Source: Candidatus Melainabacteria bacterium (GTDB lineage Bacteria > Cyanobacteriota > Vampirovibrionia > Vampirovibrionales > JAJTHC01). Taken from it: a DNA stretch of 32,594 nt. The notes under the pieces were generated by a model, which made no database searches, was not told the DNA's origin, and saw only the letters and a list, made by a program, of their open reading frames with translations. The stretch's first letter is position 1. Each line of letters begins with the position of its first letter. The stretch lies in NCBI GenBank assembly GCA_026389055.1, contig JAPLIO010000165.1, positions 1 to 32,594 on the forward strand, written 5' to 3'. The translations under genes were made by a program, and so were the position numbers. Of this stretch, positions 2,610 through 28,890 are shown in pieces.

Positions 2610-2870
2610 GCAAGCATTATTTATTAGCTTTACTGAAATTTTTAACTTCAAACCCTATGCAGTTGGAAATAGGCTGGTGCGAGCGTAGCGAAGCAGGGCA
2701 ATTAGGGAGCCTCTAGCTTCCGCCCAAGCCTATTTTGAACGTGCAAGCAAACCAATCAACCCTTGAGAGGGGTTTATTAAGGGGGCGTGGAGCCCCCTTA
2801 ATTTTGCGGGGGGTGTGGGGGGTGCCCAAATGGTACCCCCATGAAGCCCCAGACCGAAGCGATAACTTTA
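2610..2870 (+). repeat. R1 structured intergenic repeat, copy 1
   Basis: This stretch is repeated at about 7120-7375. The left part folds into nested stems: AATAGGCT (about 2667-2674) pairs with AGCCTATT, an inner GGGC pairs with GCCC, and an apical GGGAGC pairs with GCTTCC around a CTCTA loop. Between the outer and inner stems lies an identical 5' internal segment, GCGAGCGTAGCGAAGC. The right part has the perfect hairpin TTAAGGGGGC/GCCCCCTTAA (about 2777-2801) and a second hairpin around CAAAT (about 2818-2840). It lies between rnc (plus) and the response regulator (minus), so the GC-rich hairpin may serve as terminator for either gene. Paired changes relative to copy 2 preserve the stems. 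Confidence 0.75.
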
Positions 2871-7081: not shown

Positions 7082-7440
7082 GGAAGCCTTGCAATTTGAC
7101 AAGAAATTGAACGTTCAATTTTTTTAGATTTTATTGGAATTGTTAGTTTAAAACCACATCTAGTTGGGAACAGGCTGGTGCGAGCGTAGCGAAGCAGACC
7201 AATTAGGAAACCCTCTGGTTTTCGGTCAAGCCTGTTTTCAACGTGCGTGGGAACCAATCAACCCTTGAGAGGGGTTTATTAAGGGGGCGTGGAGCCCCCT
7301 TAATTTTGCGGGGGTATGGGGGGTGGCCAAATGGCACCCCCCACGAAGCCCTAGCTCGAAGCGATTAACCTGTCTGTATTCATTAAACAAAAAACGTTAG
7401 GTGTTAAGCATATCTGCAGGAAACCTTGCAATTTAGACAG
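7082..7440 (+). repeat. R1 structured intergenic repeat, copy 2, with flanking direct repeats
   Basis: This is the second copy of the element at 2610-2870. The outer stem reads AACAGGCT with AGCCTGTT, the inner stem ACC with GGT, and the apical stem GGAAACC with GGTTTTC around CTCT. All differ from copy 1 yet still pair. The hairpin TTAAGGGGGC/GCCCCCTTAA (about 7279-7303) is identical. The copy is flanked by a near-identical 22-base direct repeat, GGAAGCCTTGCAATTT at about 7082 and GGAAACCTTGCAATTT at about 7419. That could mark an insertion or a recombination boundary. The region separates the CDF-CorC gene (minus) from rsmA (plus) and holds no gene. Confidence 0.75.
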
Positions 7441-16114: not shown

Positions 16115-18030
16115 TTAAGGGGCTAGTAATTCAGCTTTAAACGCCGTGGGCGAAGGCATGGCTATTGGAAGAGGTTCTTTAAATTGGGCATTGTATAGGT
16201 TAGCATAAGCCCCACCATCGGCTAGTAGTTGGGCGTGCGTGCCTTGTTCTACAATTTGCCCGTGTGCCATTACTACAATCATATCCGCATTCATCACGGT
16301 GGAAAGCCTGTGGGCAATAACCACCACGGTACGATTTTGCATCAGCGAATCAATCGCCTGTTGAACCACGGCTTCTGATTGGTTATCTAACGCACTGGTG
16401 GCTTCATCTAACACCACCAACGGGGTGTTTTTTAAAAACGCCCGAGCAATCGCAATCCGTTGTTTTTGCCCACCTGAAAGCAATACGCCTCGTTCACCAA
16501 CAGGGGTTTCAAGTCCTTGGGGTAGGCTGTTGACAAAATCTCGTAAATAAGCGGCATCAATTGCCTGCCAAAGTTCGGTTTCCGTGGCTTTGGGGTTGGC
16601 TAATAAAATGTTTTCCCGAATAGAGCCTACAAACATGAAGTTATCTTGAAAAACAGCACATGAAAGGCTGGCTAACGATTCTTTGGTCAATGTTTGAATG
16701 GGGTGGGCATCAAACCGAATTTCGCCTTCAACCACATCATAAAGACGCAACAATAAATGGGCTAACGTGGTTTTACCACTACCTGAAGACCCTACTAAGG
16801 CAATGGTTTTGCCTGTAGGAATCAATAAATCGATATGGTTTAGCACCATCGGTAAGTCTTCACGGTATTGGAAGCTAACATTTTGGAGTGTAATGCCTGT
16901 TTCAATGGCGTGCAACGTCGCCCCTTCGGTGGGGAATTGCAGGGTGGGCACTCTATCCATCAGTTCATAAACCCGTAATAGCCCCAGATAAGAAAGCTGC
17001 AGTTGCGTGCTCATATTTCCCAAGCTTTTAATGGGGGTATACAGTAGCACCAATGAAGTAATAAACGAGGCAAATCCGCCTGCGGTCATTTCTCCGCTTT
17101 GCAGTAAGCCTGTGCCAAACCACAACACCAAGCTAATACCCAAGCCCGAAATGCTGTGCATAATAGGGGTGATGGCTCCCTGAACCGTGGCTAAACGCAA
17201 CGCAATATGCCGAAGCCCTTTAATAGATTCTTCAAACGCTGCTAGTTTGGCATTAAACAAGTGAAACACCGCAATCACTCTGTTTCCCTGTAGGGCTTCT
17301 GTGTAATGCGAACTGAGCAACGACATATTTTGCAACGTGGTTTCACTCACTTTTTTCAGATATTTCCGAGCAAACGCCAAGGGAATGAAAATGGTACTAA
17401 GCACCAATAAGGCAACCGTTGCCAGCTTCCAAGAAATACTTAATAGCGTTAAGGAAAGCCCAATAACGGAAAATGTTCGTACCAGTGAAGACTTCAACAT
17501 ATCCGTAACGCCATTAATGGCTAAATCTACATCGCCCCCAAAGCGGGCTAAAATATCGCCCGTATTGGAACGGTCAAAATAGGCGGGTTCAAAGCTGAGC
17601 AGTTTGGCGTAGAGGTCTTTTTTAACTTGAGTATTCAAACTAACGTTTAGGTGGCAATATAGTTGAAAGCCCCTTGGGTGCACATAAAAATAACAATCCC
17701 CAGCGGAATCATCCAAGCGTTTTTCAGAATATCCACACCCGCTGGCAGAAACGAAATAACCACGCTGGTAAAGGGCTTTGTCCATAGCGGAAAGCCTTCA
17801 AACACTTGGGAAATGCTTTTATGTTCTAGTACTAAATCTAAATAAATTTTAATACCCAACGGCATCAGGGCATCAAAAATACCCACCAGCGAAGCCGCCG
17901 TCATGGAAATGATAAACATCCAGAAAATCGTTTTAAAATAAGGCCACAACCGCATATACGCCCGAATACTCTGGAAGGCGGGTTCTTTTTCGGGTTTAGC
18001 GGGCAGGGAAGCATTAGTAGGGAATGACAA
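16115..18030 (-). pseudogene. MsbA-like ABC exporter gene broken by a frameshift
   Basis: Two overlapping frames together encode one ABC exporter (half-transporter: membrane domain plus ATPase). The N-terminal part (18030 to 17647, 127 residues) ends GAFNYIAT and a TAA. The other frame continues at about 17650 with LNVSLNTQVKKDLYAKLLSFEPAYFD and runs to 16115. Joined, they give about 638 residues. The ATPase is intact: Walker A GSSGSGKTT, Q-loop AVFQDNFMFVGSIRENI, signature LLSGGQKQRIAIARAF, Walker B LVVLDEATSALD and the IAHRLS switch. The frames meet around GCCACCTAA, which is not a canonical slippery site, so a one-base error or real mutation is likelier than programmed frameshifting. The class suggests export of a lipid or other amphiphile. 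A promoter candidate lies at 18069-18097. Confidence 0.8.
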
Positions 18031-18068: not shown

Positions 18069-18097
18069 AGCATAAGATAAAGTTACCGTTGACTCAA
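18069..18097 (-). promoter_or_regulatory. Candidate promoter of the ABC exporter gene
   Basis: On the minus strand TTGAGT (18092-18097) and TATGCT (18069-18074) are 17 bases apart, about 40 bases before the gene. The -35 hexamer falls at the edge of R2 copy A, so that repeat may supply part of the promoter. Confidence 0.5.
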
Positions 18098-18244
18098 GAG
18101 CTTACTGAAAAAGCCTTCATTAGGCGTGCTAGCGTTGTTACTTGCGGTACTCCCTTGGTTATGTAGTTTTGGCTACACGCCCGTCAGTCCGTTCCGCGTG
18201 CCTAGCTATCTCATCCTACTGAAATCTTTTTCCGCAACCTCCTA
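18095..18244 (+). repeat. R2 structured repeat, copy A
   Basis: The ends are imperfect inverted repeats sharing GAAAAAG, TTCA and TAGG. The core has an apical hairpin TGTAG/CTACA (about 18161-18176). GGCGTGCTA, GGTACTC and CGTTCC blocks are shared with copy D. The right arm overlaps the 3' end of murG and encodes its last residues and TAG stop. The left edge borders the ABC exporter promoter. Confidence 0.75.
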
Positions 18245-19427
18245 AGCAATTCATTATTTTTGTGATAATTGTTTGCGTGGCTTCGGGTTTAGCTAACCGA
18301 AGGGCATGGTTTTTCATGGTGGTTAATGCTTCAGGTCGTTCGATTAACCGCTTTACTTGGCGAACCAAATTTTCCGCCGAACAAGCGGCATCTAGCAATA
18401 AAATACTCGCTCCCTCTGCTTCGCTTAGCCGAGCATTCGCTTCTTGATGATTAGCCGCTGCGTAAGGGTAAGGCACCAAAATAGAAGGCGTTCCACTTAA
18501 ATACAATTCCGAAAGGGTTAAACTGCCTGCACGGCAAACGGAAAAATCTGCTACTGCCCACAGGGCATCCATCCCATTAAAAAAGGGTTGGCAATGGTAA
18601 GCCGAAGCTATTTTTTCAGCTGTTTCAGCCTCCCACCCCGTGGTAGAGTGTGCTTGATAAAGCGATTGCGTTTCTTCCCATAATTTATCGCCACATTGAT
18701 GAATTACTTGCAAATTACAGTCTGCTATCAACTGCGGTAAAGCTTGAACCACGGCTTTGTTGAGCGTTCTAGCCCCTTGAGACCCGCCCACAATAACCAG
18801 TGTTAGCTTTTCAGCAGACCAGCCTGCTAAGCCTAATTGGTGAAAGGCTTCCGTTTTTGAAAGCGAAGTAAAATTGCCTCGCAACGGGTTGCCCGTAAAG
18901 GTATAGCGGTCTTCTGGAATGCCTAGCCCTTTGGCTCTGTTGGGGAATGCACCCGTTACCCCAGCAGCCCACCGAGCCATCAATTTATTGACTAGCCCAG
19001 GTACGACATCGGGTTCATGAATAAAATAGGGAATATGGAGTTGTTGGGCTGCCGCCAAAACAGGGGCTGCTACATAACCGCCCGTGCCAATAACTGCCGT
19101 GGCATTAAAGGCTTTTAGTTTTTGTTTGGCTTGTTTAATGGCTTGATTGAGTGCCCACAACCAGCCCAGCAACTTGAACGGATTCTTCCCCCTTGGCATA
19201 CCCCGAAACGGCACGGCTTCAAAGGGTAAGCCCGCTTCTGGCACTTTTTTAGATTCCAAACTATCCGCATTGCCAATATACAATAACGCTTCAACGTTGG
19301 GGTGATGTTTTAACGCATCTGCCAGTGCCAGTGCGGGGTAAAGGTGTCCGCCCGTGCCACCGCCTGTTAGCACAATTCGATGCGTTGAAGTAGCTTGTGA
19401 TGTTGTTTTAGGGGTTAGCGTTTCCAT
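18216..19427 (-). CDS. murG: UDP-GlcNAc:lipid I N-acetylglucosaminyltransferase
   Basis: MurG adds GlcNAc to lipid I to give lipid II at the cytoplasmic face of the membrane, the last inside step of peptidoglycan synthesis. The 403-residue protein has the N-terminal glycine loop RIVLTGGGTGGHLYPALALAD (about 17-37), the central loop VIVGGSQGARTLN, and the donor-binding segment FSVCRAGSLTLSELYLSGTPSILVPYP. It is about 40 residues longer than E. coli MurG, mostly at the N-terminus. ftsW ends eight bases upstream on the same strand. Its final residues (GKRFQ) and stop come from repeat R2 copy A, which seems to have replaced the original C-terminus without harming the fold. Confidence 0.96.
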   Translation of the reverse strand: METLTPKTTSQATSTHRIVLTGGGTGGHLYPALALADALKHHPNVEALLYIGNADSLESKKVPEAGLPFEAVPFRGMPRGKNPFKLLGWLWALNQAIKQAKQKLKAFNATAVIGTGGYVAAPVLAAAQQLHIPYFIHEPDVVPGLVNKLMARWAAGVTGAFPNRAKGLGIPEDRYTFTGNPLRGNFTSLSKTEAFHQLGLAGWSAEKLTLVIVGGSQGARTLNKAVVQALPQLIADCNLQVIHQCGDKLWEETQSLYQAHSTTGWEAETAEKIASAYHCQPFFNGMDALWAVADFSVCRAGSLTLSELYLSGTPSILVPYPYAAANHQEANARLSEAEGASILLLDAACSAENLVRQVKRLIERPEALTTMKNHALRLAKPEATQTIITKIMNCLGGCGKRFQ

Positions 19428-23601: not shown

Positions 23602-23627
23602 TATCATCAATCCTCTACCTTAAAAAA

Positions 23628-23773
23628 TAGACCTCTTGCATGACTCGATATCTGGGGCATCTTTTTTGTCATTTACGGTACTCCCTCAGGTTAAGTAGTT
23701 AGGCTACATGCCCATCGGTGCGTTCCGCATTCCTCAAATCTGCACCCACCTATCAAGTCATGCAAGAGATTTA
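23628..23773 (+). repeat. R2 structured repeat, copy B
   Basis: The 146-bp element has terminal inverted repeats, ACCTCTTGCATGACTCGATA at the left and its near complement at the right. The apical hairpin GTAG/CTAC lies near 23695-23706, with GGTACTC and GCGTTCCGCAT in the core. Its outer arms resemble copy C, and it is the same length. It sits directly upstream of the SuhB-like gene. Confidence 0.75.
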
Positions 23774-23795
23774 TTGTAACACGGCATAAAAAAAA

Positions 23796-27243: not shown

Positions 27244-27485
27244 ATCAATATGATTAAAGTATTATTTACAAACACCGCTATTAAACAACTAACCAAAATA
27301 CCGCCACTCATTGCCAAAAAAGCGTTGGCTTGGGCAGCAGAGGTAGAGAACAAGGGGCTACTGGCTTCAAGGCTTATTAAAGGAAAGCATGACGAACCCT
27401 TGAAAGGCAAACGCCAAGGACAACGCTCCGTAAGACTAAATAAACAATGGCGATTGATTTATAGCGAAATAACGCTTGAAATAAT

Positions 27486-27631
27486 TAGACCTGTTACATG
27501 GCTCGATAGGTGGGTGCAGATTCTAGGAATGAGGAACGGAGAACCGCAGGTGTACACTTTAGTACATGAGGATTCGAGTACCGCAAATGACAACGAAGAT
27601 GCCCCAGATATCGAGTCATGTAACAGGTCTA
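27486..27631 (-). repeat. R2 structured repeat, copy C, inside the toxin gene
   Basis: Within TA dinucleotides, GACCTGTTACATG at the left pairs with CATGTAACAGGTC at the right. The length, counting both TA, is 146, as in copy B; with one TA as target duplication the insertion adds 144 bases, exactly 48 codons, with no stop in the toxin frame. The apical hairpin is TGTAC/GTACA. The element is in reverse orientation relative to copy B. Confidence 0.8.
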
Positions 27632-28234: not shown

Positions 28235-28654
28235 ATGATGAGTCATCATCCGTTAATTGAAGAAATTAACCAAGAATTCCTAAAAACAGACCGCCCCAGC
28301 ATTTTCCCTGGCGATTCTGTGCGTGTAAACGTATTGATTCGTGAAGGCAGCAAAGAGCGGGTTCAAGCCTTTGAAGGCGTGGTTTTGGCTAAACGTGGCG
28401 GTGGTATTAACACCACGTTTGTTGTGCGGAAAGTATTCCAAGGCGTTAGCGTAGAACGCTCGTTCTTCTTGCATTCACCTAAAGTGGAAAGCATCAAAAT
28501 TATTCGCCGTGGTAAAGTGCGTCGTGCAAAACTTTACTTCTTGCGTGAACGGATTGGTAAATCTGCCCGTATTCGTGAAAAAACCACGGGTTACGCAACC
28601 ATCAATAAATTTGGCAACATTTTGTTGGCGAACCCTACTACGCCTAAAAAGTAG
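28235..28654 (+). CDS. rplS: Ribosomal protein bL19
   Basis: L19 sits at the interface of the 30S and 50S subunits. The 139-residue product shows the family pattern: GDSVRVNVLIREGSKERVQAFEGVVLAKRGGGINTTFVVRKV (about 26-67), then GVSVERSFFLHSPKVESIKIIRRGKVRRAKLYFLRERIGKSARIRE. It is about 20 residues longer than the usual 115, with most of the excess in the C-terminal tail after ARIRE. Two consecutive ATG codons (28235, 28238) open it and the ribosome-binding site is weak. The downstream neighbours are rbgA and rnhB, an order I recall from Firmicutes and others. R2 copy D begins 10 bases after its stop. Confidence 0.96.
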   Translation: MMSHHPLIEEINQEFLKTDRPSIFPGDSVRVNVLIREGSKERVQAFEGVVLAKRGGGINTTFVVRKVFQGVSVERSFFLHSPKVESIKIIRRGKVRRAKLYFLRERIGKSARIREKTTGYATINKFGNILLANPTTPKK

Positions 28655-28663
28655 ACTTCTTTT

Positions 28664-28811
28664 TAAGAAAGCTCTGCAAAAGTCTCCATAAGGCGTGCTA
28701 ACTTCGTTATTGTGGTACTCATTTCGGTTATTTACTATTTGTAAACGCCCTTATTGCGTTCCTCATGCCTCGTTATCCCATCCTTCTGAAACCTTTTGCA
28801 AAACTTTCTAA
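28664..28811 (+). repeat. R2 structured repeat, copy D
   Basis: It lies between rplS and rbgA. The ends pair: AGAAAGCTCTGCAAAAG at the left with CTTTTGCAAAACTTTCT at the right (imperfect). The core carries GGCGTGCTAAC, GGTACTC and GCGTTCCTCATGCC, with the apical hairpin TTTAC/GTAAA (about 28731-28745). It separates genes usually placed close together. Confidence 0.75.
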
Positions 28812-28890
28812 ACCCATTAAAAGTGCGGGTGGATTATTCAATCTCTTCCCGCACTTTTTTTCACTCCCGAAAAAGGGGCTTTTCTTTACA

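What the first reader, a model, noticed from the sequence alone, without database searches (positions are those of the whole stretch)
18212..18244. Repeat R2 copy A supplies the end of murG
The right arm of copy A encodes the last residues (GKRFQ) and the TAG of murG. The element therefore seems to have inserted within or at the very end of an essential gene, with the C-terminus rewritten. Its left edge also borders the -35 of the ABC exporter promoter.
Basis: partly seen in the sequence, partly recalled or inferred. Interest (0 to 1): 0.5.

Follow-up and report, generated by a model that had tools for sequence, protein, structure and literature searches.

The report
Transposon remnant rewrites murG's tail
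A 144-bp non-autonomous transposon jumped into the last codons of the cell-wall gene murG in a Vampirovibrio-like bacterium and now encodes its last eight amino acids and stop codon; sister copies sit in frame inside mutS, rsmE and other genes, so this small mobile element repeatedly becomes part of proteins.

Summary
Confirmed and extended. Window 18098-18241 is a 144-bp palindromic MITE with terminal repeats GAGGTTRCGGAAAAAG, one of dozens of copies in this genome. Its arm encodes MurG residues 396-403 (GGCGKRFQ, not only GKRFQ) and the stop. The nearest sequenced relative, Vampirovibrio DET50b, has the empty site: its murG ends ...MDCLSNQ* where ours ends ...MNCL-GGCGKRFQ*, and the sequence resumes after the element (TTGAGT...TTTATCTTATGCT). 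MurG tails vary among relatives, so the change is probably neutral. The element shares its ends with an IS5-family insertion sequence that has about 40 near-identical full-length copies in DET50b. Across both genomes, 21 of 46 examined copies keep an exact 4-bp target duplication. Beyond the finding, the canonical copy (140 bp + 4 bp = 48 codons) is inserted in frame and stop-free inside mutS (in both species), rsmE, an acetyltransferase-like gene, an FAD oxidoreductase and a GH38-like gene, always in the same strand and frame. It works like Rickettsia palindromic elements and Coxiella QMITEs: a new member of a known kind. The promoter claim is unproven; the "-35" is ancestral and overlaps the target duplication.

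The parts
18098..18241 (.). 144-bp MITE, older GCGG-type subfamily
   Evidence: 46 BLAST matches in the genome; TIR pair; absent from the relative; folds at -47.2 kcal/mol, z -3.97
18226..18241 (-). Intact TIR, GAGGTTGCGGAAAAAG read on the - strand
18098..18113 (+). Degraded TIR, GAGCTTACTGAAAAAG
18242..18245 (.). Target duplication, murG side (CTAA; TTAG in murG), changed at two bases from the ancestral TCAA/TTGA
18094..18097 (.). Target duplication, other side (TCAA = TTGA on the - strand), identical to the empty site
18216..19427 (-). murG, 403 aa
   Evidence: TIGR01133 E=8.7e-83, matched residues 15-391; translation
18216..18242 (-). Element-encoded end of murG: residues 396-403 GGCGKRFQ and TAG
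   Evidence: homology to DET50b ends at L395
18069..18097 (-). TAA)
   Evidence: not reported by the scan
16115..18030 (-). MsbA-like ABC exporter downstream, split into two ORFs by a 16-bp deletion relative to DET50b

Best explanation
The feature is a MITE: a non-autonomous, palindromic element with the ends of an IS5-family insertion sequence. The transposase of the full-length IS presumably recognises the shared terminal repeat GA(G/A)GTTRCGGAAAAAG and inserted a copy into the last codons of murG, duplicating the 4-bp target TTGA (insertion, empty site and family target duplication shown; transposase action inferred). Reading now runs past Leu395 into the element arm and stops at a TAG inside it, so the original SxxStop ending is replaced by GGCGKRFQ-Stop. 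The event postdates the split from DET50b and was tolerated because the conserved MurG fold ends near residue 391 (inferred). It is one case of a general behaviour: the 140-bp canonical copy plus its 4-bp target duplication is 48 codons with a stop-free frame, so it can also settle inside genes without breaking them.
For: Empty site in DET50b with collinear flanks. The MurG protein alignment diverges exactly after L395. 21 of 46 copies from both genomes have exact 4-bp target duplications, against 0 of 46 and 0 of 45 at flanking control offsets. An IS5-family transposase (NF033581, E=3e-69; Pfam DDE_Tnp_1) lies in a 1.17-kb element with the same TIRs in this genome. DET50b has about 40 near-identical full-length copies of it, 7 of 12 inspected with exact 4-bp duplications. 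MITE and near-identical IS are confined to this genus among the relatives searched, with only weak hits elsewhere. In-frame copies: mutS in both species; rsmE and an acetyltransferase-like gene with element-free orthologs in DET50b; an FAD oxidoreductase; a GH38-like gene. MurG tails are variable, and solved MurG structures align only to residue 391-393.
Against: The murG copy's own target duplication is imperfect (TCAA against CTAA, 2 of 4) and its left TIR has diverged, so it is not recent; the two changed bases have to be explained by later drift. Trans-mobilisation by the IS is inferred from shared ends and target length, not shown. Both genomes are draft assemblies (DET50b is a metagenome assembly), so an assembly error at one copy is possible, though the element here lies in the middle of a 32.6-kb contig.
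Confidence: 0.93

Rival explanations
1. The element is kept at the end of murG by selection, because its hairpin acts as a 3' mRNA stabiliser, processing site or attenuator between murG and the downstream ABC exporter gene.
For: The 144-nt strand folds strongly (-47.2 kcal/mol, z -3.97) and sits between two genes on the same strand.
Against: No terminator-like tail was found. Any palindromic MITE folds this well, and copies also sit inside genes and in other contexts. The downstream gene carries a frameshifting deletion.
Confidence: 0.12
2. The element was ancestral at this site and was precisely lost from DET50b, so the short SNQ ending is the derived one.
For: Element loss does occur: the smc locus of DET50b keeps only a 15-nt TIR remnant of a copy that this genome still has.
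Against: At murG DET50b has no remnant and no duplicated 4 bp, and the other 28 homologs have other tails without the element-encoded ending.
Confidence: 0.06
3. In the in-frame hosts the hairpin is skipped by the ribosome (bypassing), so the proteins never contain the element peptide.
For: Bypassed palindromes exist in some mitochondria (cited in PMC6649704).
Against: In all internal hosts the element is in frame and stop-free, always in the same frame and strand, which bypassing would not need. It does not apply to murG, where the stop lies in the element.
Confidence: 0.04

Closest known systems
Coxiella burnetii QMITE1/QMITE2 (PMC5896051)
   Same: MITEs with TIRs that overlap the 3' ends of functional genes (ubiB, nagZ, recN, ruvB and others) and alter the C-terminal residues with little change in protein size
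   Different: Sequence relationship not tested; QMITE2 duplications are 7-9 bp; all functional genes affected by QMITEs were hit at 3' ends, whereas this family also sits inside genes
Rickettsia palindromic elements (RPEs; Ogata et al., summarised in PMC10969869)
   Same: About 150-bp palindromes inserted in frame in unrelated genes, encoding a conserved peptide
   Different: Here an IS5-family partner with matching TIRs and a 4-bp target duplication are visible; the host is in another phylum; sequence homology to RPEs was not tested
IS5-family insertion sequences (NCBIfam NF033581)
   Same: The full-length partner encodes an IS5-family DDE transposase and has near-identical ends
   Different: The element at murG carries no transposase gene and is 144 bp
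Intragenic ERIC elements and MITEs of Anabaena PCC 7120 (mentioned in PMC10969869)
   Same: Small mobile sequences that contain ORFs or affect host ORFs
   Different: Different sequences as far as known; only the review was read

Membership tests
MITE (non-autonomous DNA transposon) | Terminal inverted repeats | tested here: met
   TIR pairs in 29 copies by pattern; one TIR degraded at murG
MITE (non-autonomous DNA transposon) | Target-site duplication of fixed length | tested here: met
   21 of 46 copies exact at 4 bp, 0 at control offsets; at murG itself only 2 of 4 bases still agree, but one side equals the empty site
MITE (non-autonomous DNA transposon) | Short, no transposase gene, multicopy | tested here: met
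   140-213 bp, dozens of copies
MITE (non-autonomous DNA transposon) | Empty site in a relative | tested here: met
   murG; rsmE and the acetyltransferase-like gene
IS5-family derivative | TIRs shared with an IS encoding an IS5-family transposase | tested here: met
   L062 in this genome; about 40 full-length copies in DET50b, the 12 inspected with TIR GAAGTTACGGAA(A/T)AAGG
IS5-family derivative | Mobilised by that transposase | not testable with these tools
   Requires a transposition assay
Rickettsia palindromic elements | In-frame insertion in unrelated genes encoding a conserved peptide | tested here: met
   Five hosts, same strand and frame; murG itself is a terminal, different-frame case
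Rickettsia palindromic elements | Sequence homology to a known RPE family | not tested
   RPE sequences were not at hand; Rfam gave no match in the window at gathering thresholds. Not filed as an RPE.

The most novel reading that the evidence does not exclude
The 47-residue peptide of this MITE has been retained as a working part of a core protein in at least one host. In mutS the insertion is shared by both species, just before the Walker A motif, and is more conserved (138/140 bases) than the mutS DNA on either side (84-87% over 120 bp), which would mean domestication of a transposon as a protein segment.
Probability: 0.12. Interest if true: 0.65.

Novelty: new member of a known kind. Interest (0 to 1): 0.42.

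Why it matters
Protein-coding palindromes were made famous by Rickettsia. This is a comparable family in Vampirovibrio (Cyanobacteriota in the broad sense) with a visible IS5-type partner in many near-identical copies, clear 4-bp target duplications and empty sites in a sister species. That makes a question testable that has been hard to approach: how often small transposons become parts of proteins, and whether an element of 140 bp plus a 4-bp duplication (48 codons) persists because it preserves the reading frame. For murG alone the event is a minor, probably neutral tail change.

Tried and rejected
An Rfam scan of the window gave no family. An AlphaFold model of MurG from two sequences was too poor to use (mean pLDDT 40). 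The plasmid collection has no match to the canonical element. A second TIR type (AGGTGCTGTTGA...) gave 11 sites and no IS-length pair. A claim that the mutS insert is under selection was considered and not adopted: its low divergence is significant against the mutS average (P about 5e-4 binomial, 1e-3 Fisher), but other 100-bp windows of mutS are also 100% identical between the species, mutS as a whole is unusually similar compared with murG, and inter-species recombination is not excluded.

Full report
Observation. The DNA at 18098-18241 belongs to a dispersed repeat: 46 BLAST matches in the window's own genome at E <= 1, seven of them full-length or nearly so at 82-90% identity. The 17-mer GAGGTTGCGGAAAAAGG is found 78 times with up to 2 mismatches, against none for the reversed control pattern. 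Pairing these ends gives elements mostly of 140-144 bp, with longer ones (168-213 bp) most of which carry nested inserts. On the - strand the right arm reads GGA GGT TGC GGA AAA AGA TTT CAG TAG, so MurG (403 aa; TIGR01133 E=8.7e-83) takes residues 396-403, GGCGKRFQ, and its stop from the element.

Empty site. A search of public genome contigs with MurG returned Vampirovibrio sp. DET50b (L031, 80% identity, residues 1-395). It is genome G001 of the whole-genome tool, since the contig lengths of 1,488,955 agree. Its murG ends ATG GAT TGC TTG AGT AAC CAG TAA followed by TTTTATCTTATGCT. The window has AATTGCTTAG, the 144-bp element, then TTGAGTCAACGGTAACTTTATCTTATGCT. The 4-bp target was therefore TTGA. 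The copy after the element is unchanged; the copy on the murG side is now TTAG, of which the TTG-to-TTA change is silent (Leu). The ancestral ending was probably ...CLSQR* or similar (inference). The protein alignment diverges exactly after L395. Twenty-nine homologs have 2-21 residues of unrelated tail after the position equivalent to residue 391, and the solved MurG structures align to residue 391-393. The tail is outside the conserved fold and the change is probably neutral (inference).

What the element is. One 1.17-kb element in this genome (G000:C19:1180-2346, L062) has the same ends and encodes a 311-aa IS5-family transposase (NF033581 E=3e-69; DDE_Tnp_1). DET50b carries about 40 full-length copies at 97-99% protein identity. 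The 12 inspected copies are 1158-1169 bp, have TIR GAAGTTACGGAA(A/T)AAGG, and 7 have an exact 4-bp target duplication. The MITE copies from both genomes show the same duplication length: 21 of 46 exact at 4 bp, none at offset controls. Among the relatives searched only DET50b has comparable MITE copies; G002 and G010 give one weak match each. I conclude that this is a MITE family sharing ends with an IS5-family element; mobilisation in trans is inferred.

Beyond the finding: in-frame copies. The canonical length of 140 plus the 4-bp duplication is 144 = 48 codons. One frame on each strand is open in many copies (15 and 21 of 28 copies of 140 bp; 0 in the other four frames). Copies lie in frame, without a stop, inside: (1) mutS, 938 aa, directly before the Walker A motif (MP-[47 aa]-PQVQIVTGPNMAGKS), with the same insertion in DET50b; (2) rsmE, where the DET50b ortholog lacks it; (3) an acetyltransferase-like gene (my reading; no Pfam match), where the DET50b site is empty, CCTTAT|AGCCG against CCTTAT[element]TTATAGCCG, and the copy carries a nested 33-bp insert that is also in frame; (4) an FAD/amine oxidoreductase; (5) a GH38-like gene, again with the 33-bp nested insert. 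All use the same strand and frame, with the shared core VGWDNEARGTELGRLH. Other copies form C-terminal tails: smc (...PPT-GVTEKVLVGRDS*; DET50b smc keeps only a 15-nt TIR remnant) and an ORF on C116. murG belongs to this second class, read in another frame of the element.

The mutS insert. Between the two species the element differs at 2 of 140 bases, while the 120 bp on either side match at 101 and 104 of 120; four-fold sites are 19/19 identical in the element and about 77% in the flanks. Both copies share one private base and two rare ones, pointing to a single ancestral insertion. Selection or recombination could each explain the low divergence. I do not claim domestication.

The promoter remark. 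TTGAGT-17-TATGCT begins with the duplicated TTGA and is present at the empty site, so the insertion neither created nor destroyed it. With 8 of 12 consensus matches it is not reported by the scan. No claim on expression is made. The exporter itself has a 16-bp deletion relative to DET50b that splits it into two ORFs.

Comparison with the known. Coxiella QMITEs do at gene 3' ends what this copy does at murG (PMC5896051). Rickettsia RPEs do inside genes what the sister copies do (PMC10969869). Sequence homology to either was not tested, so the family is filed only as a MITE with IS5-family ends that works like both. No paper on such elements in Vampirovibrio was found in the held library with the terms used.

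Limits. Both genomes are drafts; host-gene calls rest on open frames and profile matches; nothing here shows translation, protein function or transposition experimentally.

Noticed in passing
G000:C18 (L173:630-3446), G001:C1 (L174:382-3183): mutS carries the MITE in frame, about 10 residues before the Walker A motif, in both species; the insert is more conserved than the adjacent mutS DNA.
   Followed up: partly
L146, L167, L093, L094, L096; 41 sites in G000 and 18 in DET50b: A second, tiny repeat (about 33-38 bp, two hairpins, TTGATT..AATCA(T/C)TC(C/T)GC..GCGGAA) is nested inside MITE copies, often at the same spots and sometimes in frame; it resembles small dispersed repeats.
   Followed up: partly
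window 23626-23775 and 27484-27631; L009, L011, L013, L016, L022: The inner about 70 bp of the MITE recur inside elements with quite different terminal repeats (TAGACCTCTTGCATGACTCGAT, AGGTGCTGTTGAAAATAG, GAAGCTGTCTGCATAG), as if one core had been combined with the ends of several transposons.
   Followed up: partly
window 28650-28820: A divergent copy of the same element (ends like GAAAGCTCTGCAAAAG), with stops in its frame.
   Followed up: no
window 17640-17660: The MsbA-like ABC exporter has a 16-bp deletion relative to DET50b and is split into two overlapping ORFs; it is either a pseudogene or an assembly error.
   Followed up: partly
G000:C234 (L167), GH38-like ORF: The same protein also holds two copies of a VGVRFIAS / GRDKSRPYTG-type segment, which looks like another protein-coding repeat.
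   Followed up: no
window 2629-2863 and 7130-7365: A direct repeat of about 235 bp at 81-82% identity, 4.5 kb apart, containing a GC-rich palindrome (GGGGGCGTGGAGCCCCC).
   Followed up: no
G000:C104 (L079): Two MITE copies in opposite orientation about 380 bp apart flank what looks like a ribosomal-protein (L27-like) gene.
   Followed up: no
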